Source of the DNA: Buxus sempervirens
Lineage: Eukaryota; Streptophyta; Magnoliopsida; Buxales; Buxaceae
NCBI GenBank assembly: GCA_947561395.2
Contig: OX387182.1
Span: forward strand, 41,223,949-41,287,948
Length of the DNA: 64,000 nucleotides
Direction: 5' to 3'
Part shown: positions 15,232-64,000 of the stretch, piece after piece
Position numbering within the stretch: the first letter of the stretch is position 1
How the letters are laid out: each line of letters opens with the position of its first letter
The notes under the pieces: model-generated
Seen by the model: only the letters and a program-made list of their open reading frames with translations
Databases searched by the model: none
What the model was told of the DNA's origin: nothing
Program-made: the position numbers and the translations under genes

Positions 15232-15244
15232 TGTTAAAAGATGC

Positions 15245-28940: not shown

Positions 28941-29080
28941 TATCCGGTATATCAGACCGGATAACAAAGGGCCTTAAGGTATCCGGTACATGGTACCGGA
29001 TACGCTAAGGCCCACACGTATCCGGAATGAGTATCCGGATACGGGGAGGAGCACTTGTATCCGGATTGAGTATCCGGATA
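28941..29080. promoter_or_regulatory. palindrome cluster I-e (5' LTR U3)
   Basis: Four full 23-bp units at 28941, 28980, 29019 and 29058, exactly 39 bp apart. The fourth is complete here, showing that the shortened unit at 10287 is a later 13-bp loss in the other LTR. Confidence 0.92.
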
Positions 29081-29171
29081 CTGGCAAAAATTTATTTTCT
29101 TCAAATTCTGTGCTGGCTTTCCAGGAGATAATGATTTTTGATGATTGTTTGTGCAATTTGGGGTGTCTACA

Positions 29172-43336: not shown

Positions 43337-43560
43337 AACCGCACTTGAAGAACGGTTTGGTCCGAACCGCACTTCAGATACGGTTCGATCTTCTAGAAGG
43401 TGGACGCGTGTCCTGTACGGCGACTGCTGGCAGATTCGCGCCGATTTGCACGTGTTGAATGCCAACCGCACTTAAAGTACGGTTTTTGTTTTTTTAGTGC
43501 AATTTTGTCACAACCGCACTTTAAGTACGGTTGTGACCAAAACGCACTTAAAGTACGGTT
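43337..43560. promoter_or_regulatory. palindrome cluster III (older LTR U3)
   Basis: Five 21-bp units AACCG-N11-CGGTT start at 43337, 43365, 43464, 43512 and 43540 (the last with AAACG). Steps are 28, 99, 48 and 28. The spacer is often CACTTAAAGTA or similar, so units are nearly full palindromes. The last unit ends 17 bp before the TATA box. Confidence 0.88.
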
Positions 43561-43576
43561 CCGGCACTTTTTTGCC

Positions 43577-43584
43577 TATAAATA
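43577..43584 (+). promoter_or_regulatory. TATA box of older LTR
   Basis: TATAAATA in GCCTATAAATAGAGG on the plus strand, giving the orientation of this LTR. Confidence 0.65.
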
Positions 43585-45578
43585 GAGGGCCAGCCCCCCC
43601 ATTTGAAACAAGCGGTCCCCCTCGGTCCCCACACTCTCTCCCTGTCCTTTGCTAACCCGAAACCTTGTCCAAATGCTGTAGCACCCAATCCCCAAACATT
43701 GGAATGCCCAAAATACCCCTTACCTTGTCTAAACCATGCCTAAACCCCTTCTTCTTACCTAGTTAATAAAAGAACCCAGCTGTGAGACATGGATTCGTCA
43801 TCTCGGATGACTTCCGATATCGTCACGCGGGGATCGATAAATGTTAGAGTCGCCACCATCCATTTTAAGGTGTGAATGGACACCAAAGGGTTCATGGATG
43901 TCAAATAGAGCCAAAGTAGCTCTGATACGAGGAAAATCCAGAGATTGGGTACGGGGAATTATTTATGAGCGGGGGAAGGTGTTAGGCACCCCCATTCATC
44001 CGTCTAAGACGGTTACCACATGCTTGCTTATGCTATAAATTGTTTGCTAGTAAAATTAACAAAAAGGTACTTAACAAGCACAATATGTGTGACCCTTCCA
44101 CATGAGAAGCCTAATGAGTTTAGACTCTCTTCGTGGATTCATCACTTCTAAAACTTCATGAGTGAAGGAAAATCAAGCCAAGGCAAATCTGGAGAAATTC
44201 GGTCAAAAGAGCTTGAAAGCTTGATAAACCATAACTCATTCGATTTAAATCTAAATCAAATGAAACCAAAGCCATTTGAAAACTGGTATATAGTAGAATA
44301 TACAGTAAAAAATTCAGCTCAATCCGATTCAACACGAGAGAGAAATCCACATATGAAATTTGCTGTTATAACTCAGAAAAAGTGTTAAGTAGGCATTTTC
44401 AAAGTCCTATTCGTGGAGTTTGGCTCAATAAAAATCCATAAAAATTGGTATGGAGGAAGTATGTAGTGCCATCTTTCCAAAGAAAAAAACCTCACACCAA
44501 TCTCTATCTGGATGTGACTTGTGTGCTCTCTTGAACAGGCCTAAAAGACCACAGATGAGCTCTGGACTACGCCAGCGAGCACCTCTGAGTCAACTGAGCA
44601 CCCAAGGCACAAAACAGGTCAAAATCTGTTGAAACCAGTTGGAAATGAAAATAAACTTCTCAAAGAAAACTCAGAAACTGGAATCACATAAAACGGATTA
44701 AAACTGAGCAAATAGTGCACCATCAAAGCGGCAAGTTCAGCAATCTGGGCTGAACTGTCTTACAAACTTTGAAGAGATGGTGTCAAAATTTGGCTACATG
44801 GAAACAAACGAAATTTTCCAGATATTAAATAGACCTCCCAATCTATCACATGTCTTTGGAATCACTCAAAAATTCATCCGGAGGATGAAGTTATGAGCAT
44901 TCCAAGACAGGCTATAGATCTGTCCTGTTTTTGAAGAACTGTGAATAAGAAGCCAAAATCAGTGTATGTGTGCAAGTGGATTCGACCAAAACCATTTAAA
45001 ATCATGAAAAACAACTCATGAACTTCTAAAAACTCATTCTAAGGCCAATGATCTCAGATTTTCCATATTTTACATGGAAATCCAAGATCTAGCCTATTTG
45101 ATGAAAGTAGTGAAAAGTGGGTGCAAAGATGTGGAAAATCACATTTCTATGAGAAAGTTAGAATCCATGGCTGTAGAGAGCATGGATTCACATCTTCTCC
45201 AAATATAAAAATAATCAGAGAAGCATCCAAGGGCTCAAAATAACCATATAGCATGCTTTTCATCATTTGAGGGTTCTAAGCCTAGAGGATCCATTCCACC
45301 TTCCTTTTCCCCAGGCTCTCTCTTCACGTTTTACGGCTAGAGAGGATTCCCAGGTACTTTAGAAGGGGTTTGGGGTTGCAAAAATACACACAGGCCTTAT
45401 ACTACAGAAAGGTAGAAGATGAGAGATTTTGCTAGAATGTAAAAGGGAAGCAATATCTCAAATAGGCCTTACCTTAGTAGCTTGAGCAATTGAGTAGCCA
45501 ATCCAGCAGAGGTTCTCCTTCTTCTTGCAGAGCTTCTAAGCTTCAGATTGTCAGCCATTTGCAAGAGGAGGGCCTCTC

Positions 45579-45586
45579 TATTTATA
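45579..45586 (-). promoter_or_regulatory. TATA box of element II LTR
   Basis: TATAAATA on the minus strand in GGCCTATAAATAGAG, about 200 bp downstream (gag-pol sense) of the palindrome cluster. Confidence 0.7.
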
Positions 45587-45787
45587 GGCCAAGTCAAGGG
45601 TAGAAGAGTCCCAAGGGTAGGCCAAAAAGGCCTTCTAGATTATTCCAATTCTCCTCCAAGGCATGAATTGGTGTAATTCAGCAAGTTTCGGAGGGTGAAA
45701 TAGGGAGTTCAAGTCCCTAAGAGAGAGGTAATATGCGTAAATAAGGCTCAGAGATCGAGCCATTTCGCAAAGCCTCGAAATAGCCAA

Positions 45788-46053
45788 AACCGTATACTCA
45801 GTGCGGTTTCCACAAAACCGCCACTCAAAGTGCGGTTCAATACAAATTTGAACAAACCGCATATACAGGACGGTTCAATTCAGTTATGCTTTAATTGAGT
45901 GCTGGACACGCGGCTTAACGGCCGAAGCTTCGCGAAGCCACGTGGCCGCCAGCGCAACAAGCAAGGACCTGAACCGTGCTGTTTATGCGGTTGCAACCGC
46001 ACATACAGAGCGGTTGAAACCGAGATTATAAAAACCGCATACACAGTGCGGTT
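45788..46053. promoter_or_regulatory. palindrome cluster II-a (3' LTR U3)
   Basis: Six units AACCG-N11-CGGTT start at 45788, 45816 (one base longer), 45855, 45972, 45995 and 46033. Typical middle: CATACACAGTG. Steps are 28, 39, 117, 23 and 38. Confidence 0.9.
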
Positions 46054-46166
46054 GGCACTGATTTTGAAAGTTTTTGAAAGTTTGACATATGTAAAGGCTC
46101 AAATAAGACCTTTGGAGCCCTTCTTAGTTAATCTCTTATATTGGGGTGCAATTTGGGGTGTCTACA

Positions 46167-46180
46167 ACTGCCCCCTCTTC
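46167..46180 (-). other. polypurine tract of element II
   Basis: Minus strand GAAGAGGGGGCAGT directly before the LTR start TGTAGACACC. Confidence 0.7.
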
Positions 46181-46507
46181 GCTGGGATTGGAATCCATTG
46201 GCAGCGGAGAGCAAAAGACCCGCAGATTGCACCTCTCAGGATCATGTCCATTCGATAATGAGCTGCAAGAACTCCAATATGGTTTTTGAAAAAGAATTTG
46301 TTTAAAGGATTTGATGAAAAGTCCCTAACCTTAAGGGTCAAATCCTCTCCTCGCCTCTCACAGAGCACTCGTGGCTATGAAGTGAGATTTGAGCAAATTT
46401 TAAAAGCAAAAGTTGGTAGGATGGTGTTTCTTGCAATTCACAACTGCCCTGGACATAGATCCCTTGAGAGAGATAAAAAAAGTTTTGAAAATTCATTTTT
46501 GGGTGCC

Positions 46508-46606
46508 AACCGTACTGAACATGCGGTTTTTAGCATTTTCAATTTCAACCGTGCTGTATGTGCGGTTTTCAACAATATTATTACCAACCGCTCTGTGTGT
46601 GCGGTT
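46508..46606. promoter_or_regulatory. palindrome cluster II-b (upstream of PMD1)
   Basis: Three 21-bp units start at 46508, 46547 and 46586, exactly 39 bp apart, the same step as in element I. A CATATAA TATA-like word follows at 46617-46623. Confidence 0.9.
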
Positions 46607-48048: not shown

Positions 48049-50859
48049 ATGGCCCGTACACGTCGCGCTTCTCGGGGTCCCGCAGATGAGCCTTCATCTT
48101 CGAGGGTTCGGAGGGACCCGGCCGATGTGGCCTCTTCTTCTAGGGCTGAGCCAGACCCTGAGCCTTCTTCTCCCAGTGGTCTGGAGCTTTCAGATTCAGA
48201 CTCTGGAGCGTCTGGGGATTCATTGGAGTCGATCCCAGAGGTATTCCCTATCCCTTTTTAACATCCGGCCTTTCTTTTATCACATTCAACTTTAACCCTT
48301 ATTATTCGCCTTTCTAGCCTGCTGGTGAGGTCCGTGAGCGTAGGGGAGCCCGTCGTAGAGGTAGGGCAGGGGCCCGGGCGACTCGTGTCGCCATTCCTGC
48401 AGAGATAGCAGATCAGATCCGAGACACCTCTCTTCTTAGTAGCTTGACGACACATCCTTCGGCAGGAGTTAGGGTAGACATCCCCCTTAGATATCCTTCT
48501 TCCCATTTCCGAGGGAGCTGGGCCCTTTTTGCTAATGTTGTAGGGGCTTGCTCGTCTTCTCTGCGCCGAGAGATGGTCCGTTTTGGATTTGGCCCCTTCA
48601 TTACCATCACCGGCGTTCGTCAGGATCGGCCCTTGATCTTGGCTTTGTTGGAGCGCTTTTTCCCGGAGACCCTGAGCTTCCATCTGCCTGATGTGGAGAT
48701 AGGCATTCGCCCCTCCGACTTCGCTCTCATTACCGGGATCAGGATGACTGGAGATGTCATCACTGAGATGGATCGGCCGACGGACTTGGAGATTGCCGAG
48801 CTGTTAGGATATGACGAGATGCCCGTGGAGGCGTGGGATCGGAGCAGGATCACTCGTATATCCCGGACATGGTTGAGGGAGGCATTTGTGGAGAGGGGAT
48901 TCAGCACCTTAGCAGTGGATCATCCCAGCTTCCCGATAGCTTTCCGGTTTCTCTTTCTTCTGATGATGGGATCCTGCTTCTGCTTGGAGGATACTACTTC
49001 AGTCAGCCCCCATTTCCTGAGTCTTCTCCGGGATTTGCACCGAGCGAGGGACTACGCTTGGGGCCAGCTTGTCTATGGCACCTTGCTAGCGGGCCTTCGA
49101 CGAGTGGTCTCCGGCCTGTCTTCTCCCAGGGGAGCCGGAGTAGGTTGCAGATTTTTCTGGCCCTTTCTGCAGGTATAAATTCTTTTCTTCTTTCTTTCCT
49201 TTCTTTTCTTTCTTCTTCTTTTTTTTTCTTTTTTGCTTAACCTCTTTTTCTTCTTTTCTTTTGTTCTCTCTTCTTTTTTTTTTTTTTCTTTTTTTTTTTT
49301 AGTTCTTTGCTCGGGTCTATGTGGCCCACTTTCGCCCTACCTCCACCTTGTCTGAGGGGACATTTCCCCTGGCCCGCCGGTGGAATCAGATTAGGCGTGA
49401 CTCAGAGAAGAGTCGCCCTAGGTCGGCCAGGGCTCACCTGGACAGGACCTTTAGGAGAGAGGTAAGCATTTTTCCCGTCTCTCTTTTCTTCATTTTCTTT
49501 TCTCCTTTTTATCAGATTCTGATATTCTTCTTTGTTCATTCTCAGCTATCTGTCCCCCGTCTTGACGGCCTGCATGACGAGCTGGCTTTTCAGCCCTTTG
49601 TGGATGACGCTTTCGCCCTGGATCAGCGGCGCCAGAGGTACCCATTCTTCATTGGGCAGTTGGGTAGTATATGGTACCTCGGCGAGCGATTTTTCTTCCA
49701 GCATACTGGCGAGCTCCGGATCCCAGTGGCTCCTCCAGCTACGGCCCCTTTCATCCCTCCTGGTCCATTCGACCCTGCCCATTTTGGCGAGTGGGAGGCG
49801 GGAGATGGCCTTCTAGTTGATGGTGACTATGATACCTGGTTCGGGCAAGTCTCAGTGGGTTGTCTGATGCAGCCCATGCCCGTTCGAGGTGGAGTTACTG
49901 AGATAGGGGGGGTAGTGATCCGCCTCTATGACACTACGGTATGAACCTCCTTTCCTTGTGCAGTCTTTTAGTCTTCCTTTCTTATTTACTGATCTCTTTT
50001 CTTTTCTTATCTCATTTCAGGAGGCACAGCTAGAGGAGGTCCGGGCTCGATACGCGGATCTGGAGCGCCAGCTGGCTGAGAGGGACGCCGCCATTGCTGA
50101 GAGCGATGTCATCATTACTGGGCAGGCCGCTCTCATTGCTGACTTGCGGGCTCAGTTGGCCAGTGCCCAGGGTCAGGCGGGACCTTCAGGAGCTCAGGTC
50201 TGTCTTTTCCAGTTTCTGTATTTTATCTTATCTTTTCTGCTTCTGATCAATCTGTCTTTGCCTTTCAGGAGGATGTGGCGGCTTCACCATCCAGTTCCCG
50301 CACTTTGTCCTTCTCTTTAGGAGATATAGAGATCCCGGAGAGAGAGAGCGAGGTGGCGGCCGAGGCTACTTCTGCTGGTGTAGTTCCTGAGTCGGCCGAG
50401 ATGCCCGAGGCTGTACCTGTATTTGAGACCGCTCCTTCATCTGAGCCGGAGACTGTTCCTGAGCCAGCGGAGGGTGGATCGGAGATTCCTGTGGTTCATG
50501 AGGCGGCCGGACATACGAGAGAGGAGGATGTTCCCGGCGTAGCAGATCCAGAGGTGGCCGAGCCCACGAGAGAGGAGGATGTTCCCGGCGTAGCAGATCC
50601 ATCTCTTCCGGTTGAGGACTTTCGCGTTCTGGAGCTGGTTCCCTTGGCGACGGACTCTTCAGTTTCATGCTTCATGGACCTGACCCGGGGTGATCCAGCC
50701 CCAGCCTCAGCCTCTTCCACCGATCCTGCGCCTCCTGCAGACCCGGTGCCTCCTGCTGGTCCATCCTCGCTTGGTGAGTCTTCATCTCCCGCTGGCCAGC
50801 GTTTCTCAGATCACTTTTTCATCCGGCAGCAACGGCGAGGTAGAGGCGATAGGGATTGA
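48049..50859 (+). CDS. plant mobile domain protein PMD1 of element II, 6 exons, intact
   Basis: Exons 48049-48240, 48318-49172, 49303-49461, 49546-49938, 50021-50197 and 50269-50859 join in phase with GT-AG introns into 788 aa without a stop. The first four introns sit at the same places as in element I, and exon 3 is 53 codons in both. Order: Ser/acidic N-terminus; Arg-rich segment (RERRGARRRGRAGAR); PMD core with FHLPDVEIGIRPSDF and ITGIRMTG; exon 5 coiled coil; a long Glu/Pro/Val-rich tail with a duplicated TREEDVPGVADP segment; basic end QQRRGRGDRD. The element I intron between tail exons is absent here. Known PMD proteins act in the nucleus in silencing pathways; the target of this one is unknown. 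Confidence 0.85.
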
Positions 50860-51090
50860 CCTGTTAGAGATAGGTCTAGATTTAGGATTTATCAGATATT
50901 TGTATATAAACTTGATGTATTCATTGGCAGTTTATATGAAAAGAGAAGATTTTTTTGGTTTTGTTTCCTTTTTTGTAGATTTTTTGTTTATTTTTGTATA
51001 TTTGTCATGTTACAATTGTTTATACAGGTAACAGGTTTTCTGGGAACATGACTTATTAAAAGAAAGAAGTAAAACCCCCTTTTGTGCAAA

Positions 51091-51208
51091 AACCGTACAT
51101 TCAGGGCGGTTGTGCAAGAACCGTACTTATCCCGCGGTTTTTAAACTTTGCGGGAATGCAACCGCATATTAGGTGCGGTTCAGGCACAACCGCTCTGTGT
51201 GTGCGGTT
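51091..51208. promoter_or_regulatory. palindrome cluster II-c (upstream of PMD2)
   Basis: Four 21-bp units start at 51091, 51119, 51160 and 51188 (steps 28, 41, 28). A weak TATA-like TTATTTTAAAA lies at 51221-51231, and the PMD2 ATG is at 51340. Same position as cluster I-c. Confidence 0.9.
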
Positions 51209-51339
51209 TTCGCCCTTAGGTTATTTTAAAACCGCGAATTGCGGGCAGGACGTCATTTTGACGTATTGCTTAGGTCAGAAACCCCCTTTTCCGGCGATTT
51301 TCTCTCTCCTAGCTGCCTTTAATCCACTTTTGCCCATTA

Positions 51340-52994
51340 ATGGCCTCTGGTTCAGCTTCTGTGCCTTCTTTATCTTCTGTACCTGAAATATCAGCACCTA
51401 GACCAAAAATTAGGTCCAAACCTCCTAATTTGACTAGGTATGCCATTGTAGATACATTCTATGAGAGGTGGGTCTCCTCAATGACCCCTCAAGATGAGAT
51501 GGATTGGGCCTCTGCCAATCTAGGCCACCTCCTTTCAATCCCAAAGATTCCTCTAAAATGGGAAATCATAGAGGCACTAATTGGGCATTGGGAGCCTCAA
51601 TTGAACCTCTTCAGGTTTGGGGAAAAAGAGATGACCCCTACAGTCGAGGAGGTTGAAACCATCCTCAACCTTAGCTTTTCTAAGAAAGTAGTTAACCCAC
51701 CTCTCAAACCGAGCTTCAAAAAGGAAGCCTCCACCTTTTTGGGGATTAACAAGAAAGAGTTAGGGGAAGCCGACGCTTTATTGACCCTATCAAAGTCATT
51801 TTTGACTGAAAAGCTGTTGAATAGCCCAAACCAGTCGGCCCGGTTCAATGCTTTGACCTTGATAGTGGTCAATCAACTTTTATTCCCCCGAGGTGATAGT
51901 GAGGTTGATCTATCCCTCATTTCAGTCATTTGCCAAGTTAGGGAGCGCGAAAGGCTTGCCCCTATGATCCTGGCTGAAATATACCAGGCCTTGACTGACT
52001 GCTATCACAGGAAGCAGAAAAGTTTCCTTGCCTGCGCCCCTATACTTCAGGTAAAATCTGAATCTCCTTCCTTGAATTGTAATTTTTATTGCCATGTTGA
52101 AATTTTCTAAGGTTGGAAATGCTTCCCTGTTTTGTGTAGCTCTGGTTACTTGACCACCTGAGTCAAGTTGAAGAGATAACCCGGCGCTTCTTCCCCAGGT
52201 TGGACGTTCCTGTTTTGATGAGCAACAGGGGGTGTCCCAATATACATGGCGGCAAACAGGGATGGTTTGCTTTCTTGGGGACTCTTCAGGACGACCAGGT
52301 GAGATGGCCCGGTGCTTACCAGCCTTCCGTCGAGACAGTGATCAGCTTCTCTGACCGAAACTTCGCTGTGCTCATGGGCTTGAAGTCTGCCTTGCTCTAC
52401 TTGCCTTTGAGGGTCATCCGGCAGTTTGGAGAGGAGGTGCAGGGGATTTTGGTACCTCATGGATATGAAGAACTCCTTGGTCCCCTCACACCAGCTACCA
52501 TGGGTCTCTGCTTCCGCCTATTGAAAGACTGGTCGCAGGCCTGCTTTTTGAGAGGTCCCGTCTTCTCCAAATTACATGAGAAGGATTATCTCCTTTGGAT
52601 TAGGGAGCAGGTGCAGAGCTGTGCCTCTGTACCGGCTGATCCTCCCGCTATCCCGTGTCCTACTTATGAGGACCTCTTGGAGACCGAGCGGGCTTCTCAT
52701 AGGCGGCTTCAGCTCATATGGGTGGAGGAGGCCCGCACTTTGAGGTTGGAGAAAGAAGACCTGGAGCGGCGATTATCAGAGCAGATACAGGCCCGTCGCT
52801 TCGAGGTGAGAGCTGCATGGCGCAGGCATGACGAGACCATGGCCAGGCTCAGAGATATGAGGACTAGGCAGACCCTCTCCGATGATGTCATCTCATTCCT
52901 CAGTGACCCAGATGCAGAGGGGGCTGAAAGGCTTGTGGCGGTTCAGGCGGCTCGGATCAAAGAGCTTGAGGAGAGGCTAGGGGATAGAGATTAG
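51340..52994 (+). CDS. PMD2 of element II, 2 exons, intact
   Basis: Exons 51340-52050 and 52140-52994 join in phase to 521 aa. The protein resembles uncharacterised plant DUF7745/PMD-like proteins: SKPPNLTRYAIVDTFYERWV near the start, HWEPQLNLFRFG then EMTPTVEEVETILNL, LTLIVVNQLLFPRG, and in exon 2 QGWFAFLGTLQDDQVRWPG. The C-terminal 110 residues are strongly charged and heptad-like (LEKEDLERRL, RIKELEERLGDRD), a probable coiled coil for dimerisation. The intron position is the same as in element I. A partner role with PMD1 is possible from context only. It is antisense to pol and ends about 1 kb from the pol stop. Confidence 0.8.
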
Positions 52995-54037
52995 CCCCTT
53001 TCATTGTATTTTTTCCTTTTTTACACTTCTGTACAAAGAGAAACTCCACTAGTGGAAAGATAGAGAATACAAAGTAGGTTTTTATACTATTGGCCTCAGA
53101 ACTCTCATATGCTTGTAAAAACTGACAGTTTTAATGAAAAGTCACTGATTTCTCATCATCGGCCAAAATATAGTTTTCATTTTTGTGTGTTTTTATTGTA
53201 AATTGGTCCATAATACTTTAATCCCATATAGTTGGATGAATTGAAGTAAGTTGGGCAAAAAGGGTATTTCAGTTAATGAGGAGGAAGCCAATCCGTCCCC
53301 CTTGGAACCCTTAGACTCATCCCCAAGTTTCTTTCCCACTTCCAGGGGGCCTGCCCCAGCCTACTGGTTCAGTCCTGTGCATAAAATCTGCTCAATTCAC
53401 TTCTGCTGCGCAAAACCGCGCATTCAGAACGGTTTAGCCAAAACCGTCTTCAATATGCGGTTGCATAGCCCTTCTGCCAAAACCGTAGAAAAAGGGCGGT
53501 TTGGTTCAATCTGTATCCCAAGTACGGTTGGTGACCTTTTTCCTGTTTCTTCCTTTTCTTTTATTCTCTTTTTTCTTTCGCCTTCTTTCTGCCAATATTG
53601 CCCCTAGTGCCTGTTACGGTTTTCACTAGGACCGGCCTGTTTTATTCCGTCATTGCCCTTTCAACATCCCGAGCTTGAAGGAATACACCCAGATCACCGA
53701 GGACTTGATTGATAGGACGAAATGAAGGCTGGGCTGGGTTTATGAAAAAAAGTTATTATAGGCTCAATATTTTAACATCTTGAAAATGGGACAACTGGGC
53801 TTACAGTCATAATGGATGCGACCCCCCATTCCCAATATTGGCCTTCTGTTTTTTCTTTTGGCCTTTCTTTTCTATTTCCCTTTTTGTTTTTCTATTAACC
53901 CTGCCCCATTCGCGACGGTAAGCTCCAGTTTGGGTTCTTTAAAACACGAACAGGCTCAACTTGGTTTAATCTAGGGATATTAGAATTTGTGAGGGAGGAA
54001 GAAAAATGGCCTCGGATCATTTCTTTGTGATATTCCT
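52995..54037. other. PMD2-pol intergenic region of element II
   Basis: 3' regions of two convergent genes. It contains the palindrome cluster II-d and otherwise AT-rich sequence. Element I has lost this region by deletion. Confidence 0.55.
53414..53529. promoter_or_regulatory. palindrome cluster II-d (downstream of PMD2)
   Basis: Three 21-bp units start at 53414, 53442 and 53481. A fourth, at about 53509, keeps only its right arm. Steps are 28, 39 and 28. Confidence 0.85.
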
Positions 54038-57000
54038 TCAAGGGAAATATTGCTTGACCGCATCGGAGTTGATTGGCTCAGGAAAATCTGCCCCATCCAT
54101 TTCTGTCAGGATAAGAGCTCCTCCTGACAAGAGCTTCTTTACTACATAAGGTCCTTCCCAATTTGGCTTAAACTTTCCACGAGGGTCTTCCAGAAATGGT
54201 AATATCTTCTTTAAGACTAGATTACCCACTTGGAAAGCTCTGGGCTTCACTTTCTTGTTGTAGGCCCTGGCCATTCTCCTCTGATACAGTTGACCATGGC
54301 AAAGCGCCTTCAACCGCTTTTCTTCTATCAGATTAAGTTGCTCATATCTAGACTGAACCCATTCAGCCTCTTCCAGCTCTGTTTCCATAAGCACTCTTAA
54401 TGAAGGGATTTCTACCTCAACAGGTAAGACTGCCTCTGTTCCATAAACCAAGGAATACGGCGTTGTCCCCGTAGAAGTTCGGATCGAGGTTCTGTAAGCA
54501 TGGAGAGCAAATGGTAACATCTCGTGCCAATCTCTGTAGCTTACCACCATCTTCTGGATTATTTTCTTTATATTCTTATTTGCCGCTTCTACTGCTCCAT
54601 TCATTTTTGGCCTGTAAGGGGCTGACTTGTGATGAGTTATCTGAAACTTCTCACACATCTCCTTCATATCCTTGTTCTTAATATTCGAAGCATTGTCTGA
54701 AACTATGGCTTTTGGCAACCCATAGCGACAAATTATGTTGTGCTTTAGAAACTTAAGAACATGGTTTCCTGTGATATTTGCATACGAAGCAGCTTCAACC
54801 CATTTTATGAAATAATCGATTGCCACCAGAATGAACCGGTGTCCATTAGATGCTTTTGGAGAAATCATCCCAATGACATCAATACCCCACATAGAGAATG
54901 GCCATGGAGAGGTCATGCTGTGCAGTTCACTTGGTGGTGCATGCTTATTATCAGCATATATTTGGCACAAATGGCATCTCTTAACATGTAGGCAGCAATC
55001 GTGCTCCATTGTAGACCAATAATATCCCAATCGTAATATTTTCCTTGCGAGCATGTGTCCATTCATGTGCGGCCCACAGACTCCCCCGTGCACTGTTTCA
55101 ATCAACCTTTCTGCTTCAACCTTGGTGACGCATCTGAGTAGAACATTATTGTAAGATCTCTTATACAACTGCCCACCATTTAGAAGAAACTGTCCTGCTA
55201 ACTTCTGGATTGTTCTTTTTTCAGTGGGACTAGCGCTTTCTGGCAGATTTCGATTATCCAAGAAATTCTTGATATCTTGGAACCATGGTATTTCTGTTTC
55301 TTGCGCTCCTTCCAAAACAAGACAGTAAGCTGGCTCGTCTCTGACTTCAATTTCTAGTGGTTGTATGTCTACCCCTTCTGGAATACTAACCATTGAGGCC
55401 AATGTCGCCAAGGCATCCGCAAACTGATTCTTAGCCCTTGGCATATAGCTAAAAGAAATTCGAGTAAATTTGGTACTTATTTCTTCCAAATATTGGTGAT
55501 ATGGGATCAATTTATGATCTTTGGTTTTCCATTCCCCAGTTGTTTGGAAGATGATAAGACTCGAATCTCCATATACGTCAAGTTCTTGAACATCATGGTC
55601 CAGAGCAGCTTGTAATCCGATTATACATGCCTCATACTCTGCTATGTTGTTCGTGCACTGAAATCTCAATTTCACTGCGATTGGGATATGTGAACCATCT
55701 GGCTTTACTAATACTGCGCCGATCCCATTTCCATTCATATTTGCAGCCCCATCAAAGAACATCTGCCAGGAGTCTTCACTTTCTTCTTCTTCAGCGAATA
55801 AGATGGCCTCATCCGGGAAATTCGTCTTAAGAGGTTGATAATCTGGTAATGGATGCTCAGCTAGGTGGTCAGCAATTGCCTGACCTTTGATTGCTTTCTG
55901 AGTGACATATGTCAGGTCGAATTCTGAAAGCAAAAGCTGCCACTTTGCTGTTCTACCAGTTAAAGCCGGCTTCTCAAACAGATATTTTAGCGGATCCATC
56001 CTTGAGATCAGCAAAGTCGAATAGCTTAAAAAATAGTGCCTAAGCCTTTGAGTCGCCCAGACCAAAGCGCAACAAGTCTTTTCCAATGGCGAATATCTTG
56101 TCTCATAATCTGTAAACTTCTTGCTCAAATAGTAGATAGCCTTTTCTTTTCTGCCTGTTTCATCATGCTGCCCCAATACACATCCCATTGATGTTTCTAG
56201 AACTGATAGATACAGAATCAGTGGTTTTCCTGGAATTGGCGGTACTAGAACAGGAGGATTTGACAGATAATCCTTTATTTTGTCGAATGCTTGTTGGCAA
56301 TCCCCATTCCAGATAGTTGGGTTATTCTTCCTTAGAAGTTTAAAGATCGGCTCGCAAATAGCAGTAAGTTGTGCTATGAACCGGCTGATATACTGAATTC
56401 TTCCCAGAAAGCCCCTAACTTCTTTTTCAGTCTTAGGAGCTGGCATCTCAATGATTGCCTTGGCTTTAGACGGGTCTATTTCAATCCCTCTTCTGCTTAC
56501 AATGAATCCCAATAATTTCCCGGATGTGGCTCCAAAGACACACTTTGCTGGATTAAGCCTTAAGCTGTACTTCCTTAGACGGTCAAATACCCTCTTTAGA
56601 TTGATTAAGTAGTCTTCCTCTTCACATGATTTGGCAATCATATCATCCACATATACTTCCATCTCTTTGTGGATCATATCATGGAAAAGGGCTGTCATGG
56701 CTCGCTGATACGTCGCCCCGGCATTCTTTAAACCAAAAGGCATGACTGTGTAGTGGAAGGTTCCCCAAGGAGTAATAAAAGCAGTTTTCTCTTGATCCTC
56801 CTTTGCCATTTTAATTTGGTTGTATCCGGAAAAGCCATCCATAAAAGAGAACAGGCTGTGCACTGCCGTATTATCAACCAAGATGTCGATGTGTGGCAAT
56901 GGGAAGTCATCCTTCGGGCTCGCTTTGTTCAAATCTCTGTAATCCACACACATCCTGACTTTTCCATCCTTCTTTGGAACTGGGACTATATTGGCTAGCC

Positions 57001-58411
57001 AATCAGGGTATGTGGACACCGCCAAAAACCCGGCTTGAAACTGCTTCACTACTTCATCTTTGACTTTCAAAGTCCATTCCGGTTTTAACCTTCTCAATTT
57101 CTGCTTAATAGGTTTTACTCCTGGCAGGATGGGCAGCCTGTGTACAACCATGTCTGTATCCAACCCTGGCATATCCCGATAAGACCATGCGAACACGTCC
57201 TTGTAATCGGCCAAGAATTGGGACATTTCTTTCTGCTGTATTTCAGACAAGCATGCACCAATCTTTACAATTTTTGGGTCCTCTTCAGTTCCCAGGTTTA
57301 TGGAAATGGTTTCTTCAATATTAGGTTGAATACCCATTTCGTGACGCTCCAATTGATATGATATCTCTCTTGGAAGGTCATCGTCTTCGGCCTCGATCTC
57401 CTCTTCGATCCCCATTAGGTCGAAGTCGAGCTCGAGGTCGAAGTCGTATTCAACTTGCTCTAATTCAGTCTGTATATATGGCTCATAAGCAGTCTGGACC
57501 ATTTTGAAAGCTTTAGATTTTCTAGAAAAAATTGAAAAATCTTTTTGAGTTTTTTGAGAACCTTCTAAAAAGGCTTTTCCTGAAGATGAAGGTTCATTAA
57601 AACCTTCAGGAAAAGGGCAATCCACTAATGGAGTTTTTTTTTTTTTGGAGGACGCAGCTGATTGCCAACCATATGCAGCCTCAAATGTCAAAGGGGTCTC
57701 TTCCCAATTTTTCAATACAAAGCCCTCTGGAACAGGTGGTATAGTGCAAACCCGTTCCTCCTCAAACTCTTGATCCGATACCATCATTACCGGATTTGAA
57801 AAGCTGCCCTTTTCTGCTTCGGGGCTGAGTTCAGAGGTGACTTCATCAGGAATCTTGATTGAGGCCCAGTCGATAAAAGGAACCTCTTCTTCTGCTTTCT
57901 CTCTTCCTTCATTCTCTGTCATTGCAAAGAATGCCCCTGTCTCCTCTGTGAAATCCTGCTGCTCTTGTGGCAGTGGCTCAGGCTCACCCGTGGCTTCAGG
58001 CGTCAAAGTGGATGAGAGGGGGATAAAAGGTTGAAGGGTTGAGGTAAAAGGCTTTCTAAAAGGGTTGTCATTGAAATACGGAGGCTTGGAGGAATCTGTA
58101 GGAGGAGCCAATTGAATGGTATGAGAGGGCCTCGGGAAAGTTTCCCTTAAATGAGGGAATTTTCCTTGATTCTTTCCCCTCTCATTTTCTTTCTGCGGTC
58201 TCCTCTTCCATCTTCTCATTTTCATCCCTAGTCCTACTCGTTGGACTAGCCTTTGTGCCTCTATGGGCTTCACCCTTCCTTGCAGGTTAATGCCCAACCC
58301 CTTTCCTGGGTGGAAATTGCAATCCTTTAAAACTTTCTCCACCATCTTATTGGCGCAGGTCAACCTCTCTTTCTTTTGACACCCCCCAGGTATGAAGTTG
58401 ACTGTTTCGAA
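54038..58411 (-). CDS. pol: pol of element II: G-patch, RT, RNase H, archaeal RNase H, integrase
   Basis: Open from the stop at 58414-58412 to 54038, about 1457 codons. The first Met in the frame is at 58363, but the natural reading probably continues from protease. It starts with a G-patch-like segment (HPGKGLGINLQG), then an acidic linker with a 13-A run, RT with YVDD, and a Ty3-type RNase H lacking its first Asp (LYLSVLETSMGCVLGQ). The archaeal-type RNase H is complete (FFDGAANMNG, EYEACI, YGDSSL, FADALA). Integrase follows with an HHCC finger, D-D-E (GIDVIG, VSDNAS, AVEAAN) and a GPY-type end (FKPNWEGPYVV). No chromodomain, as in Tat. All catalytic residues I can check are present. Confidence 0.93.
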   Translation of the reverse strand, partial: FETVNFIPGGCQKKERLTCANKMVEKVLKDCNFHPGKGLGINLQGRVKPIEAQRLVQRVGLGMKMRRWKRRPQKENERGKNQGKFPHLRETFPRPSHTIQLAPPTDSSKPPYFNDNPFRKPFTSTLQPFIPLSSTLTPEATGEPEPLPQEQQDFTEETGAFFAMTENEGREKAEEEVPFIDWASIKIPDEVTSELSPEAEKGSFSNPVMMVSDQEFEEERVCTIPPVPEGFVLKNWEETPLTFEAAYGWQSAASSKKKKTPLVDCPFPEGFNEPSSSGKAFLEGSQKTQKDFSIFSRKSKAFKMVQTAYEPYIQTELEQVEYDFDLELDFDLMGIEEEIEAEDDDLPREISYQLERHEMGIQPNIEETISINLGTEEDPKIVKIGACLSEIQQKEMSQFLADYKDVFAWSYRDMPGLDTDMVVHRLPILPGVKPIKQKLRRLKPEWTLKVKDEVVKQFQAGFLAVSTYPDWLANIVPVPKKDGKVRMCVDYRDLNKASPKDDFPLPHIDILVDNTAVHSLFSFMDGFSGYNQIKMAKEDQEKTAFITPWGTFHYTVMPFGLKNAGATYQRAMTALFHDMIHKEMEVYVDDMIAKSCEEEDYLINLKRVFDRLRKYSLRLNPAKCVFGATSGKLLGFIVSRRGIEIDPSKAKAIIEMPAPKTEKEVRGFLGRIQYISRFIAQLTAICEPIFKLLRKNNPTIWNGDCQQAFDKIKDYLSNPPVLVPPIPGKPLILYLSVLETSMGCVLGQHDETGRKEKAIYYLSKKFTDYETRYSPLEKTCCALVWATQRLRHYFLSYSTLLISRMDPLKYLFEKPALTGRTAKWQLLLSEFDLTYVTQKAIKGQAIADHLAEHPLPDYQPLKTNFPDEAILFAEEEESEDSWQMFFDGAANMNGNGIGAVLVKPDGSHIPIAVKLRFQCTNNIAEYEACIIGLQAALDHDVQELDVYGDSSLIIFQTTGEWKTKDHKLIPYHQYLEEISTKFTRISFSYMPRAKNQFADALATLASMVSIPEGVDIQPLEIEVRDEPAYCLVLEGAQETEIPWFQDIKNFLDNRNLPESASPTEKRTIQKLAGQFLLNGGQLYKRSYNNVLLRCVTKVEAERLIETVHGGVCGPHMNGHMLARKILRLGYYWSTMEHDCCLHVKRCHLCQIYADNKHAPPSELHSMTSPWPFSMWGIDVIGMISPKASNGHRFILVAIDYFIKWVEAASYANITGNHVLKFLKHNIICRYGLPKAIVSDNASNIKNKDMKEMCEKFQITHHKSAPYRPKMNGAVEAANKNIKKIIQKMVVSYRDWHEMLPFALHAYRTSIRTSTGTTPYSLVYGTEAVLPVEVEIPSLRVLMETELEEAEWVQSRYEQLNLIEEKRLKALCHGQLYQRRMARAYNKKVKPRAFQVGNLVLKKILPFLEDPRGKFKPNWEGPYVVKKLLSGGALILTEMDGADFPEPINSDAVKQYFP

Positions 58412-59232
58412 CTAAAAAGAGTGAAAAGCAATTTTGTCCGCCGTTAATTCTACATTAATGAAAGGTACGTCAGGTGGTATGACAGGAGGGACTAGGTTCT
58501 CTGCTAGGACCGTTATTACCCTTTGGCCTCTTATAAATTTTACTCTTTGATGAAGAGTAGAGGGTATAGCCCTAGCTGAGTGGATCCACGGCCTTCCCAG
58601 AAGTAGATTAAAGGCCGCCGGAATATCTATCACTTCGAATGTGATATTAAAGATATTCGGTCCGATGGTAATCGGTAGTTCAATCTCTCCCAGGGAGTGT
58701 GTTTTGGAGCTATCGAAAGCTCTTACAACCCTCCCGTTCTGCTTTATCTTGGATTGGTCCAGACCAAGCCTCACACATGTTACAAGGGGGCAGACGTTTA
58801 AGGCTGACCCATTGTCAATTAGGACCCTGGCTATCATGCTACCCTTACAGAGCACAGTGATGTGCAAAGGGTCCATGTGATAGCCTCCAACAGGGCTAAT
58901 CTCGCTTTCTGAAAAGCTTATTACATTGTGAGATAGGATCTGGCCGATCATCGTGCCGAGCTGGTCTGGCTCAATTGTTTTGGGCACGTGGGCGCTCTGG
59001 AGTACTTTCATTAATGAGTCCCTATGCTTTTCTGAATTAAGCAATAATCCCAGTATTGATATCTGGGCAGGGACCTTGGTTAGTTGGTCAACAATATTGA
59101 ATTCACTCTTTCTCAGTATCCTTAGGAGGTCCTCTGCCTCCTTACTGTCGACCTGAGGGGTGTCTTCCCCTATCTTGGCCTTCCCCTTCTGGATTTGCTC
59201 TGCTTCTTTCCTTTCTTGTTCTTTTCCTTTCT
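58412..59232 (-). pseudogene. protease region of element II, separated by a stop and a frameshift
   Basis: Same frame as pol, but cut from it by TAG at 58414-58412 where element I has Gln (CAG to TAG). Relative to gag it is in another frame; the shift lies close to 59230, just after MTRSGRC. Retropepsin motifs LIDNGSALNVCP and LLGRPWIHSA are intact. A single continuous frame in element I shows that these are lesions, not a programmed shift. Confidence 0.8.
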
Positions 59233-61403
59233 ACACACCTCCCTGATCTTGTCATGAGGTTTACCTCCTCCTGACCTTGATTGCCGGCCACTGGGATAGT
59301 GGTCGTATAACCCTCGCTGTAGTTCCAAGGTACAGCGGTTTCTGAATAAGAGGGTTTAGGCACGTTAAATACCAAGGGTTGGAGGTGGGACCTAGGTGCA
59401 GGAGCTGATGTAGGAATAAGGTTAGAAGAAGGCACCTCAATAACCAGAGGCGAAGATTGCCTTGGTTCCTTGGGTTGAGAGGATTTTAAGGTCTGAGAAG
59501 AAACAGACGTAATTGAAGCAGTGGTGGGGTCATAATTAATGACCAAAGATGGTTTGGGTGATGGAGTAGTGGGGGAAGCAACAGCCTGGTTGTAATTAAT
59601 AATGAGAGGGGGTTTGGCTACATTAAGCTGGGCCATGAGAGAGGCGGCCCGGCTTAGAGAGGCATTAATGTCCTCTGCAGTCTTGCCATTTCCATTATTT
59701 CCAGAAATGACGTTGATTTGTTCCTCTATCCCTTCCTGGTCAAAATAGACCTTAACGGACGTCCCTATTGGCGCAATTAACTGCGAGGGATCAAACGTCC
59801 TAGGTCTAGAAGAGATGGTCCCTACGAAATTGGAAGGACCAGCCCCATTATGCTGGGGCAGAGGATTCTGACCAATGTCAGTCCTGGTGGGAGAGGGTGC
59901 AGCTGTGTTAAACAACAGGGTTCCCTGATCGATCAAATCTTGAATGGCGTGTTTTAATGGCCAGCACCTGTCTGTAGGGTGTCCTGGTGCACCCATATGG
60001 TATTCACAGGTGGTGGAGGGATCGAAATTCTTTCCCTTTGAAGCATTCGGATTTGGTTCTTTCAGGGTGACATACCCTGCGTTTAACAAAGATGGCAAAA
60101 GTTGGGATGGAGTCACAGGAAGAGGGGAAAGGACCCTGCTTCTTCTGGACGCCATCCAAGCGTCTCTCTCCTCTTTTGAGAATACCCTTTTTTGGTTGGG
60201 CATTGCTGCCTGAGGAACATTAATGTTGAGAGGGTTTTGATAGGTCGATTGTGGCTGCACCGGACTGGGTGGAGGTGCAGCAATATTGATTTGGATGGGT
60301 TTTTGTGGTGGTTGGGGTTGTACCATGTTTACTTCCCCTTCTTTCTTTCCTCCATTCCTTCTTGCCCCATTTTTCTGCTTCTGGGCAGAAGGATCAAAAG
60401 TGGGCTCCTGCTGACGAGCTGTGGCAGAATGGTCGTGGATTCGTCCGGATCTGATTCCATCTTCAATCCGGTCCGCGACCAGTACTAGGGCAGCGAAACT
60501 GGTGGTAACCTGACCCACCAAGTGATTGTAAAATGGATGCCCCAATGTGCCAATGAAGGTGGTAACCATCTCTGGCTCCATCATGGGAGGCCTGACTTGA
60601 GAGGCGGCTTCTCTCCATCTTTTGGCATACTGCCTAACTGTCTCATCTCTTCCCTTACTCATTTTCATCATATCGTACCTATCTGGCACGATGTCAGCAT
60701 TGAAACGGTACTGAGCAAGGAAAGCATCAGCTAGGTCCTTCCACCTTCTGATTCTACCATGGTCCACAGTTGCGAACCATCTCAAGGCTGCCCCAGTTAG
60801 GCTTCTCTGGAATAGCTGGATCAGGATGCCATCATCCCGGCCAAATTGGCATAACGCCCCACAGTAGAGCTTCAGATGGCTCATTGGGCATCCGGTGCCG
60901 TCATATTTTTCAAAGTCCGGGCACTTAAATTTGGCCGGTAAGCATGCGTCGGGGTACAGGCAGAGATCTTGGAAGTTGGTACCACCCAACGTGTTGATCC
61001 CCCTGACTTCTTTCAATTCCTCCTGAATGGACTCCAGTTTGTCCAAAAATTTTCTCTCCACTTCTACCCTTAGTCTCTCTTTTTCTTTTTCCTTTTCCCT
61101 CTCACATTCAGATTCCTCCTCCCGGATCAGGATAGGCTCGGGGTTTGGATGAGAGAGTTCAGGTTGAGGTGGGATAGGTTGGATTGGTGGTGGAAGTTCA
61201 GTCTGGGGTGGAGCCTGTGGTGGTGCATTGTGGGATGATGAAGCTTGGTGAACCTGAGCCTGCGCCTGTTGCGCCTGCACCTGAGCCTGAGCGGCTTGGT
61301 TGGCCAGCAAATTCTCCAATAGTTTGGTCATCCCTGCCACTTGCTCTTGCAGTTGAGCAAAGGCCTCAGCCGAAACAGTAGATTGTTCTTCAGCAGGGTT
61401 CAT
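59142..61403 (-). CDS. gag: gag of element II (C-terminus shifted)
   Basis: 753 codons from MNPAEEQ. N-terminal coiled coil and Gln/Ala/Pro-rich region, Glu/Lys/Arg-rich helix, gag core (LYCGALCQFGRDDGILIQLF onward), and a variant zinc knuckle CEYHMGAPGHPTDRC (C-H-H-C). Then a Pro/Ser linker with repeated PLVIN(Y/F) words, also seen in element I. The last about 30 residues after MTRSGRC are out of frame. Confidence 0.88.
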   Translation of the reverse strand: MNPAEEQSTVSAEAFAQLQEQVAGMTKLLENLLANQAAQAQVQAQQAQAQVHQASSSHNAPPQAPPQTELPPPIQPIPPQPELSHPNPEPILIREEESECEREKEKEKERLRVEVERKFLDKLESIQEELKEVRGINTLGGTNFQDLCLYPDACLPAKFKCPDFEKYDGTGCPMSHLKLYCGALCQFGRDDGILIQLFQRSLTGAALRWFATVDHGRIRRWKDLADAFLAQYRFNADIVPDRYDMMKMSKGRDETVRQYAKRWREAASQVRPPMMEPEMVTTFIGTLGHPFYNHLVGQVTTSFAALVLVADRIEDGIRSGRIHDHSATARQQEPTFDPSAQKQKNGARRNGGKKEGEVNMVQPQPPQKPIQINIAAPPPSPVQPQSTYQNPLNINVPQAAMPNQKRVFSKEERDAWMASRRSRVLSPLPVTPSQLLPSLLNAGYVTLKEPNPNASKGKNFDPSTTCEYHMGAPGHPTDRCWPLKHAIQDLIDQGTLLFNTAAPSPTRTDIGQNPLPQHNGAGPSNFVGTISSRPRTFDPSQLIAPIGTSVKVYFDQEGIEEQINVISGNNGNGKTAEDINASLSRAASLMAQLNVAKPPLIINYNQAVASPTTPSPKPSLVINYDPTTASITSVSSQTLKSSQPKEPRQSSPLVIEVPSSNLIPTSAPAPRSHLQPLVFNVPKPSYSETAVPWNYSEGYTTTIPVAGNQGQEEVNLMTRSGRCVERKRTRKERSRANPEGEGQDRGRHPSGRQ

Positions 61404-61639
61404 GGTAGCAGCTTTTAATCTTTGAGAACGTCGGGGAGCAATGGTTGCAGTAGGAACTTAGTACCTTAGGTAAAAGAAAAAGACAAAAGAGAAAAAGGTT
61501 AGTATCCCATCAATTCAACTTTACACACCTATGCATGCATGCATGTAGGCTTGGTGAACATGAGTCTGGGATTTTCTTTGTATTCATATTTTTTTTTGCC
61601 TTTTGTATTTATGGTTAAAATAACCTTATTAGAATGAAG

Positions 61640-62400
61640 TGATGGATACGAAAAAGATCCAACCACAGAAATTTTGTAGGAGTATTCTAGGGCCTCCAAC
61701 ATGTCCCACAAAAGATGATGTGCCTACAGTAAAAGCCTGTAGACAAATCCAGACTTGGAATCACGCAAGCTTCCAAGGGCTTATGAATTGGTTGGTGCGA
61801 AAAAGACCCGCCAATATTGGAAAATTCTAGGGCTTCCAACATATCCCACAAAAGATGATGTGCCTACAGTAAAAGCCTGTAGACAAATCAAGACTTGGAA
61901 TCACGCAAGCTTCCAAGGGCTTATGCTTTGGAATTAAGGCTTCCACAACCTCCCGAAATTACGCAGGCTTTCAGGGGCCTATGAGTTGGTTGGTACGAAA
62001 AAGACCGACCAAAGTTGGAATTGAGGCTTCCACAACCTCCTGAAATTACGCAGGCTTTCAGGGGCCCATGATTTTCTAAATTCAGGCTTTAGAAGGCCTA
62101 TGAAGATTTTGAAAAATTCTGGAATTTCAGGCTTCCAGGAGTCCTATGAGTTTCTAAATTCAAGCTTTAGAAGGCCTATGAAGATTTTGAAAAAGTCTGG
62201 AATTTCAGGCTTCCAGGAGTCCTATGAGTTTCTAAATTCAGGCTTTAGAAGGCCTATGAAGATTTTGAAAAAGTCTGGAATTTCAGGCTTCCAGGAGTCC
62301 TATGAGTTTCTAAATTCAGGCTTTAGAAGGCCTATGAAGATTTTGAAAAAGTCTGGAATTTCAGGCTTCCAGGAGTCCTATGAGTTGATTTTCTGAAATT
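61640..62400. repeat. leader tandem repeats of element II
   Basis: 61660-61930 has two copies of about 160 bp including CAACATGTCCCACAAAAGATG. 61930-62060 has two shorter units with CGCAGGCTTTCAGGGGC. 62080-62390 has four units of 76 bp with TCAGGCTTTAGAAGGCCTATG. Position equals the element I repeats, and both contain ATTCTAGGGC(T/C)TCCAA. Frames here are repeat translations. Confidence 0.88.
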
Positions 62401-64000
62401 CCAAGGCTTTCAGATGCCTAAAATATTTTTGGTTTCCCCTTAGGTGTTTTTGAGTTAAAAAGAGACTCAAATTGCTTTCAAGGAGATGATTTACTTAAAA
62501 TTTTCCTTTCACTTGATTTTTAAATGATTATTTGCTTGGAATTCAAAGGTTTCCAAGTGACCCAATTGCTCTTTGGGAGAAATCTTAAAAGTTTGAACAC
62601 TTTATGTTTAAAGATTTCTTAAAGATTGATTTTTGATTGGAATTTGCCCCATTTTAACAGAGTTGAGCTTCCTTTCATGAATTGCATTATACTTTAAGCT
62701 TAACATGTCTTGGGAACTTATTGTGATTTCCAAATTTAATTCTTGAGGTTGAAGTATGATTAGGTTGGTTATTTGAACCGATTCTCTTTTAATCATTTAC
62801 TTCACTTAAGATGGGTTAAGTGTTCAAATTAGGTAAAAAGAGCCTAACATGAGCTTAAACCGCAAAATTTGGTGCTTGACCTGACTTTTGGTTTGAGCCA
62901 ACTTTATTTCATCATTTTCACCTTTGAGTTGGATTAATTTGCTCAATTTAGGTGAATATGTTCAAAATGACCTTAATCTCTTGATCCGGGTGGATTTGGA
63001 ATGGTTTAAATGCCATTTATCTTATTTGGAGTCACTGCCCATTTGCTTATATAACTTAGGGATGAAAGGACCCAGAAATGTTTAATTAGCATGGCCAGAA
63101 TGGGATTTCGGCTTAAAACCGCACACTCAGGACGGTTTGGCCCAAACCGTATGATACATGCGGTTGCAGCGAAAATGCAGACAACCGCATACTCAGGACG
63201 GTTTTCAGCCGAAAAACAGATTTTCGAATTGTTTCCTTTTCCAATTGGTTTTATTAGCTTGGTTACTTGCCCAAACACACTGTTCACCATTGGGTGGCTT
63301 CTGGACTGCCCCAAATTGGGCACTTGACATATCAAATGGCATTAAAGGCCCGTTTAACCCTTGATTTTCATGAGATTGCATGGGGATACCAAAATATGCA
63401 CAAACAGACTTCTTATGATAAAAGAAACATGTTACAATACAAATTGGCCTTCAAGGGCATGAATCAAAATAAAATTACAATTTTAGCCTCCTTGGGCTTG
63501 AGAATGAGAATTTTTAAACTAAAAAGGAAAAATCCCTTTGTACCAGCAGCTCCAGGGTGTTCTCCACACCAATTTCCTGCAAAACAAAGGATTAGTAATA
63601 TTCATACATAGGAGGGCCTAGGTTCCCTCCCCAAAATGGACACCCAATGCATGGATTTCGGGACTTTTAGGTGCCTCCTAAGGGCATTTGGGTAGAATGA
63701 CACCTAAGAAGAGTTAAAAACTCTCTCTAAGGGCTACACCAATCCTAGGATAACAACAAATTTCTGGGAATAACAAAATCCCCACAAATGGCCGACATGA
63801 GCTTGATATTTACAAAGTAAAGATGTTACCCCAAATAATAGGCTTACATTACCTTGTTACCTCATGTTTACCTTCCAAATGGTGTCCATATCATGCCTTG
63901 GACCACCTGAGCCATGCAAGACGGCCTTCCCTCAATTACAAACCCTTTCCCCATCGCATTTGGTTTATTTTGTCCAAAAGGGTGTTTCTCCTCCTTCGCG
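62401..64000 (-). other. 5' leader of element II, non-coding
   Basis: AT-rich leader without domain-bearing frames. 63800-64000 resembles 25530-25680 of element I (GCAAGACGGCCTTCCC and neighbours). The primer binding site is not reached before the window ends. Confidence 0.55.
63117..63203. promoter_or_regulatory. palindrome cluster II-e (upstream of gag)
   Basis: Three 21-bp units start at 63117, 63145 and 63183 (steps 28 and 38), about 1.7 kb upstream of gag, the same place as cluster I-d. Confidence 0.9.

What the first reader, a model, noticed from the sequence alone, without database searches (positions are those of the whole stretch)
43337..63203. Element II and the older LTR carry a different palindrome at the same architectural positions
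AACCG-N11-CGGTT (21 bp) occurs 19 times in element II (clusters at 45788, 46508, 51091, 53414, 63117), plus one half-unit, and five times in the older LTR (43337-43560). Four of the five element II clusters match element I clusters in position: LTR U3, upstream of PMD1, upstream of PMD2, upstream of gag. The sequence has been replaced while the placement has been kept, as expected if a recognition code co-evolves with a binder.
Basis: partly seen in the sequence, partly recalled or inferred. Interest (0 to 1): 0.88.

Follow-up and report, generated by a model that had tools for sequence, protein, structure and literature searches.

The report
Jumping genes with family-specific palindrome codes
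Related plant jumping genes carry clusters of a short mirror-image DNA site near their own genes; the core of the site is shared but the outer letters differ between families, as if each family used its own password read by a DNA-binding protein.

Summary
AACCG-N11-CGGTT occurs 23 times exactly in the window (0.00 expected): 18 in element II, 4 in the older LTR, 1 in element I. Cluster positions match element I's TATCCG-N11-CGGATA clusters. But the site was not 'replaced'. Both motifs are one site, CCG-N11-CGG, sharing spacer length and a TGAGT word at one fixed spacer offset (9 of 39 units), and element I holds a hybrid unit. Only the outer 2-3 bases differ.

The host genome (676.5 Mb) holds 41458 TATCCG, 19195 AACCG and 17547 GCCCG palindromes, against 70 with one arbitrary outer pair (CT) and 3045 mixed AA/GC sites. 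Half-sites are conserved between copies while spacers and flanks drift. Seven of ten clusters tested lie 10-201 bp upstream of a TATA-like box. A third PMD1-bearing family uses a looser, GN-like code.

Best reading: dimer-binding promoter sites read by an element-encoded factor, most likely a PMD protein, working like VANC in VANDAL transposons. Binding is not shown. Relatives in which no PMD1 was found also carry arrays, so PMD2, PMD1 in trans or a host factor remain open.

The parts
43337..43560 (+). Older LTR array: 4 exact AACCG-N11-CGGTT plus one with one mismatch; TATA box (CCTATAAATAG) follows 16 bp downstream
43781..46166 (-). Element II 3' LTR (limits inferred from termini shared with element I's LTR)
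45788..46053 (-). Element II array in LTR U3: 5 exact units, plus an N12 variant at 45816; LTR TATA at 45586, 201 bp downstream on the minus strand
46508..46606 (+). Element II array upstream of PMD1: 3 units, 39-bp steps; CATATAA 10 bp downstream
48444..50859 (+). Element II PMD1 gene as three open stretches (48444-49178 with Pfam PMD; 49321-49944; 50275-50859); exon status inferred
51091..51208 (+). Element II array upstream of PMD2: 4 units; no TATA-like box found within 260 bp downstream
51340..52994 (+). Element II PMD2 gene as two open stretches (51340-52110 with Pfam DUF7745 and PMD; 52200-52994)
53414..53501 (.). Element II fifth array, 3 units, between PMD2 and the end of pol
54038..61403 (-). 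Element II gag (59142-61403) and pol (54038-58363), antisense to the PMD genes
63117..63203 (-). Element II array upstream of gag: 3 units; TATATAA 63 bp downstream on the minus strand
8127..29171 (-). Element I, complete, LTRs 8127-10387 and 26900-29171 at 99.0% identity; comparison element
10170..10270 (-). Element I array in 3' LTR U3: 3 full TATCCG-N11-CGGATA units (a shortened fourth follows)
10984..11045 (+). Element I array upstream of PMD1: 2 units
12430..14876 (+). Element I PMD1 gene as three open stretches (12430-13404 with Pfam PMD; 13627-14139; 14352-14876)
15093..15231 (+). Element I array upstream of PMD2: 4 units; CTATAAAT 13 bp downstream
15269..16814 (+). Element I PMD2 gene as two open stretches (15269-16156; 16182-16814)
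25245..25383 (-). Element I array upstream of gag: 3 TATCCG units plus the hybrid AACCGG-N9-CCGGTT unit at 25363
28941..29081 (-). Element I array in 5' LTR U3: 4 units; LTR TATA at 28783

Best explanation
The palindromes are binding sites for a dimeric DNA-binding protein, placed at the element's own promoters: the LTR (driving gag-pol), PMD1, PMD2 and a site before gag. All units in the window share a CCG-N11-CGG frame. The 2-3 bases outside it act as a family code: TAT in family I, AA in family II, a loose GN in family IV. The most likely reader is an element-encoded PMD protein (PMD1 or PMD2), made antisense to gag-pol, which binds arrays on copies of its own family and activates or de-silences their promoters, its own included; relatives without the gene would use it in trans. 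Shown: sites, code, symmetry, conservation, nearness to TATA-like boxes at most tested clusters, PMD1 under purifying selection within families. Inferred: that a protein binds, that it is PMD, and that the outcome is activation or anti-silencing.
For: Non-random sites with one spacer length. All 39 palindromic-flank CCG-N11-CGG sites of the window are of the two codes. Genome counts 41458 TAT, 19195 AA, 17547 GC against 70 for CT and 3045 mixed AA/GC. Differences from the window copy: family II 5/300 half-site, 27/330 spacer, 62/728 flank in 10 copies; family I 1/386, 17/360, 83/751 in 20 of 29 copies. TATA-like box 10-201 bp downstream in 7 of 10 clusters tested. PMD1 exon a pN/pS 0.055 (30 of 30 fetched copies) and 0.063 (23 of 30) within families II and I, yet PMD1 has the highest pN of the proteins compared between I and II. 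Family IV, whose PMD1 fragment is 73% identical to II and 54% to I, has 27-28-bp steps and a GN-like code, closer to II in spacing than to I's 39-bp steps. Precedent: VANC proteins bind motif arrays in their own transposons (PMC5735166, Results read).
Against: No binding or expression data. Structure models of the PMD exons were unusable (pLDDT 43 and 44) and no solved relative was found, so no DNA-binding fold is shown. No PMD1 was found in L077, L079 or L080, which carry arrays. Codes are not clean everywhere: a fixed-looking AA hybrid in family I, unlike halves in family IV, mixed codes in L001, L004, L076-L079. Three of ten clusters lack a TATA-like box within 260 bp, and cluster 53414 was not tested. 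Fetched copies were the best-scoring ones, which biases towards intact copies.
Confidence: 0.55

Rival explanations
1. The reader is a host transcription factor, or several paralogues, that the elements exploit; codes reflect which paralogue each family uses.
For: Elements in which no PMD1 was found still carry arrays. LTR promoters commonly use host factors (general knowledge). AACCG and GGATA resemble plant MYB-type cores (recalled, from no call).
Against: A constant CCG-N11-CGG frame with switched outer letters across families that each carry the same PMD genes is more simply explained by a reader that travels with the element. No known plant factor with this palindrome came to mind (recall only, not searched).
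Confidence: 0.25
2. The sites are bound by the element's PMD protein but to repress or limit copy number, not to activate.
For: The same placement evidence; host PMD proteins MAIN and MAIL1 act in TE silencing and in gene expression (PMC7156037 and PMC9899485, passages).
Against: Arrays are retained at both gag-pol and PMD promoters and in very many copies, which fits self-promotion better; not decisive.
Confidence: 0.1
3. The palindromes act as RNA hairpins or small-RNA sources rather than as DNA sites.
For: Inverted symmetry; tandem repeats can be siRNA sources and RdDM targets (PMC10398659, passages).
Against: Stems of only 5-7 pairs with 9-11-base loops (sequence). The half-site letters themselves, not only pairing, are kept. 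Many clusters sit just upstream of TATA-like boxes. No fold energies were computed.
Confidence: 0.05
4. By-product of local duplication without function.
For: Units step regularly at 28, 38 or 39 bp and resemble one another, as duplication would give.
Against: Half-sites differ far less than spacers and flanks, and clusters sit at matching places in two families although outer letters differ.
Confidence: 0.03

Closest known systems
VANC anti-silencing proteins of VANDAL (Mutator-like) transposons in Arabidopsis (PMC5735166: abstract and Results read; PMC10398659: passages)
   Same: Clustered short motifs in non-coding parts of the element; related families have different motifs; motif arrays and element protein both change between families.
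   Different: DNA transposon, not LTR retrotransposon. VANC has DUF1985/DUF287; here PMD/DUF7745. VANC21 motif is a 9-base YAGTATTAY arrayed in one orientation; here a palindrome with constant core and variable outer letters. VANC binding and demethylation are proven; here nothing is.
Antisense ORFs of Retand and other plant Ty3/gypsy elements (PMC11963269: abstract and passages; PMC7264820: passages; PMC9289625: passages)
   Same: Accessory genes antisense to gag-pol between pol and 3' LTR; PMD reported in Gypsy elements; a regulatory or DNA-binding role proposed.
   Different: Vicient 2025 reports TRP28 (PF04195), not PMD, in those ORFs, and family-specific tandem repeats; the passages I saw describe no palindromic array or outer-letter code.
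Host PMD proteins MAIN and MAIL1 with the 'DOWN' promoter motif (PMC7156037, PMC9899485: passages)
   Same: PMD proteins needed for expression of genes sharing a promoter motif; direct recognition proposed there but untested.
   Different: The printed example CATGCAGTTT is not this palindrome and is not enriched in the window (4 matches with up to one mismatch, about 3.8 expected).
Foamy virus Tas transactivator (search listing and abstract starts only)
   Same: Works like: an accessory protein acting on both the LTR and an internal promoter of its own retroelement.
   Different: Unrelated virus and protein; no claim of kinship.

Membership tests
Ty3/gypsy Tat-type LTR retrotransposon | gag, RT, RNase H and integrase in one element with LTRs | tested here: met
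   Retrotrans_gag, RVT_1, RNase H and rve in element II; LTR pair in element I
Ty3/gypsy Tat-type LTR retrotransposon | Second RNase H domain (trait named in PMC9289625 passages) | tested here: met
   RT_RNaseH at 711-815 and RVT_3 at 870-988 of element II pol
Ty3/gypsy Tat-type LTR retrotransposon | RT phylogeny within the Tat lineage | not tested
   No RT tree was built
PMD (plant mobile domain) family | Pfam PF10536 match over the curated cut-off | tested here: met
   58.2, 44.7, 52.5 and 52.4 bits against cut-off 34.9 for PMD1 and PMD2 first stretches of II and I
VANC anti-silencing system | VANC-type protein (DUF1985/DUF287) in a Mutator-like element | tested here: not met
   The PMD-gene stretches scanned match only PMD and DUF7745 at E<=0.001; the element is an LTR retrotransposon
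VANC anti-silencing system | Motif arrays in non-coding parts, with different motifs in related families | tested here: met
VANC anti-silencing system | Protein binds the motif and causes loss of methylation | not testable with these tools
   Needs binding assay and bisulfite sequencing

The most novel reading that the evidence does not exclude
PMD is a plant DNA-binding domain that reads a constant CCG-N11-CGG frame plus a variable outer code, giving each LTR-retrotransposon family a private self-recognition channel at its promoters. Code shifts, through hybrid or loose sites, let new families escape cross-talk or host silencing, and relatives that lost the gene live on a code by keeping its sites.
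Probability: 0.42. Interest if true: 0.92.

Novelty: new variant of a known kind. Interest (0 to 1): 0.8.

Why it matters
VANC is the one sequence-specific self-recognition system of plant transposons that my paper searches turned up, and it belongs to DNA transposons. A counterpart in LTR retrotransposons would give a function to the unexplained antisense PMD genes, point to a DNA-binding role for a domain also found in host proteins MAIN and MAIL1, and offer tens of thousands of natural sites in one genome for testing how a DNA code and its reader change together.

Tried and rejected
Homologues in the 5.8-billion-protein set: 1058 candidates, none at E<=0.001, so no other species could be compared. 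PDB sequence searches with the first PMD1 and PMD2 stretches of element II: two hits at E 0.32 and 0.81, and none. AlphaFold on two-row alignments of the same stretches: mean pLDDT 43.4 and 44.2, so no fold search was made. Host DOWN motif as the same site: rejected. L075 (10 kb near L004) gave no match to the window's proteins at E<=0.01, only LTR-like pieces. The first within-family pN/pS run and the first site listing of L035-L064 were wrong or incomplete because minus-strand loci had not been turned; one search replaces both. The Pfam PF10536 genome search listed 117 matches, all at 93 bits or more, above the window's own PMD frames (44.7-58.2 bits), and was not used for family sampling. 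In one search, 9 of 29 family I copies gave no alignment of 60 bases or more and were left out; their loci may end short of the cluster or lack it. In one search, 7 of 30 family I copies were left out because of unequal length. The TATA test left out cluster 53414. Not obtained: genome counts for GACCG-N11-CGGTC and for a second arbitrary code (TGCCG), and a listing of copies related to L086 (124, 126; 121 unanswered).
Full report
WHAT IS THERE. The window holds two long Ty3/gypsy elements on the minus strand. Element I is complete (8127-29171; LTRs 99.0% identical). Element II runs past the right edge; its 3' LTR is 43781-46166, judged by termini shared with element I. Both carry gag and pol on the minus strand and two PMD-type genes on the plus strand between pol and the 3' LTR. 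The older LTR next to element II has a TATA box on the plus strand.

THE OBSERVATION. The 21-bp palindrome is far from chance: 23 exact copies against 0.00 expected. Element II has 18 exact copies, not 19. Sites of the form XYCCG-N11-CGGrc(XY) number 39 in the window: 16 with outer pair AT (TATCCG) and 23 with AA. At spacer lengths other than 11, from 0 to 30, counts are 0 to 5.

RECODING, NOT REPLACEMENT. TATCCG-N11-CGGATA and AACCG-N11-CGGTT share the CCG-N11-CGG frame. TGAGT, read in either orientation, occurs in 9 of 39 spacers (6 in element I, 3 in element II) and always at spacer offset 4; 5000 within-spacer shuffles never gave more than 2. Units are not independent, since clusters grow by duplication and both LTR copies of element I are counted. 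Element I carries a hybrid unit, AACCGG-N9-CCGGTT, at 25363. Of six such hybrids visible in the capped one search list on contig C1, five (3391808, 3413018, 3445279, 4237653, 4520214) lie 38-116 bp from a TATCCG site in the capped one search list; the sixth lies beyond that list. In the older-LTR lineage, L004 is 78% identical to window 42885-43422, but its LTR array reads GCCCG where the window reads AACCG.

GENOME-WIDE. Counts in the 676.5-Mb host genome: TATCCG..CGGATA 41458 (reversed-pattern control 23); AACCG..CGGTT 19195 (1691); GCCCG..CGGGC 17547 (1289); one arbitrary code CTCCG..CGGAG 70 (926); mixed AACCG..CGGGC 1498+1547 (192+176). The reversed control varies widely with composition; the arbitrary code is the better yardstick but only one was obtained. 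By my arithmetic free mixing of AA and GC halves would give about 19900 mixed sites; 3045 were found. Family structure alone could produce much of this deficit, so it shows that halves go together, not why.

CONSERVATION. Ten family II copies, 82-96% identical to the window at the PMD1-upstream cluster, differ from it at 5/300 half-site, 27/330 spacer and 62/728 flank positions. For family I, 20 of 29 fetched copies could be aligned: 1/386, 17/360, 83/751. Fisher P for half against spacer is 2e-4 (II) and 4e-5 (I); copies share ancestry, so these are indicative. Five half-site changes in family II do break units in some copies. PMD1 exon a has pN/pS 0.055 (30 of 30 copies, II) and 0.063 (23 of 30, I) within families, on best-scoring copies only. 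At least 150 family II and 123 family I matches exist, both capped lists. Between I and II, pN is 0.31 and 0.32 in PMD1, 0.19 and 0.23 in PMD2, 0.21 in gag, 0.07 in the stretch between gag and pol, 0.05 in pol; synonymous sites are near saturation, so no dN/dS is claimed.

PLACEMENT. Among 28 neighbour distances under 120 bp, 14 are 39, 5 are 28 and 3 are 38; 28 and 39 differ by about one turn of DNA. Seven of ten clusters tested have a TATA-like box within 260 bp downstream on the gene's strand: 10 bp (II PMD1), 13 (I PMD2), 16 (older LTR), 63 (II gag), 158 (both element I LTRs, one event), 201 (II LTR). I PMD1, I gag and II PMD2 have none. TATA-like words occur about 0.77 per kb and strand in the window. 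The layout resembles an upstream activating site before a TATA box; no transcription start was mapped.

OTHER FAMILIES. Family IV was reached through PMD2 (capped at 150). Five copies were sampled (L081-L085) of 13 first asked for. All five have an acidic frame with an RG tail like the PMD1 C-terminal stretch. One 351-bp stretch near L082 gives PMD1 at 73% to II over 108 residues and 54% to I over 112. Four of five copies have three or four units upstream of PMD2, L084 one; units mostly read GCCCG or GTCCG on at least one side, often with unlike halves, and two begin ACCCG; steps are 27-28 bp, one 55. So the two closer PMD1s (II, IV) share 28-bp steps, while the more distant I has 39-bp steps and CCGG; family II also has 39-bp steps. 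This fits co-evolution but rests on three families. Against a PMD1-only model: in L077 (pol end to LTR array), L079 and L080 no PMD1 first or second exon was found at E<0.01 although arrays are present; the third exon is too poorly conserved to judge. The L001/L004 lineage, with a distant gag in L001 (27-31% identity), carries arrays of mixed code.

MECHANISM. Shown: symmetric, evenly spaced, conserved, family-coded sites, most near TATA-like boxes, on elements with selected PMD1 genes. I put binding by some protein at about 0.9 and an element-encoded PMD reader at about 0.55.

AGAINST WHAT IS KNOWN. The nearest system is VANC/VANDAL, where binding to motif arrays, motif differences between families and loss of methylation are shown (PMC5735166, abstract and Results read). 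It works alike, but membership fails on protein domains and element class. PMD in Gypsy elements is in print (PMC9289625, passages), as are regulatory ideas for antisense ORFs (PMC11963269, abstract and passages; PMC7264820, passages). I found no report of these palindromes or of a PMD-linked cis code in the listings of searches, in an open-licence library that lacks most subscription journals and preprints; I read only the papers named here in the depth stated.

Noticed in passing
23750-25020 and 61928-62454: Unrelated-looking tandem arrays (71-bp and 75-bp units in element I, 78-bp in element II) lie at corresponding places upstream of gag.
   Followed up: no
53414-53501: Element II has a fifth palindrome cluster between PMD2 and the end of pol with no counterpart in element I among the sites.
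   Followed up: partly
L080; L076-L079: Relatives with PMD2 and palindrome arrays in which no PMD1 was found; possibly dependent on other families in trans.
   Followed up: partly
1-1597: A piece about 95% identical to element I's LTR lies in inverted orientation at the window's left edge.
   Followed up: no
29175-30069 and 35040-35931: A direct repeat pair at 95.8% identity, 5.9 kb apart, looks like LTRs of another element.
   Followed up: no
50275-50859 and L081-L085: The PMD1 C-terminal stretch is acidic and proline-rich, ending in an arginine-glycine-rich tail in family IV and a shorter basic tail in II, suggestive of an activation region plus nucleic-acid-binding tail (inference).
   Followed up: no
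54038-58363: A G-patch domain sits at the N-terminus of element II pol, and one is matched in element I's gag reading frame.
   Followed up: no
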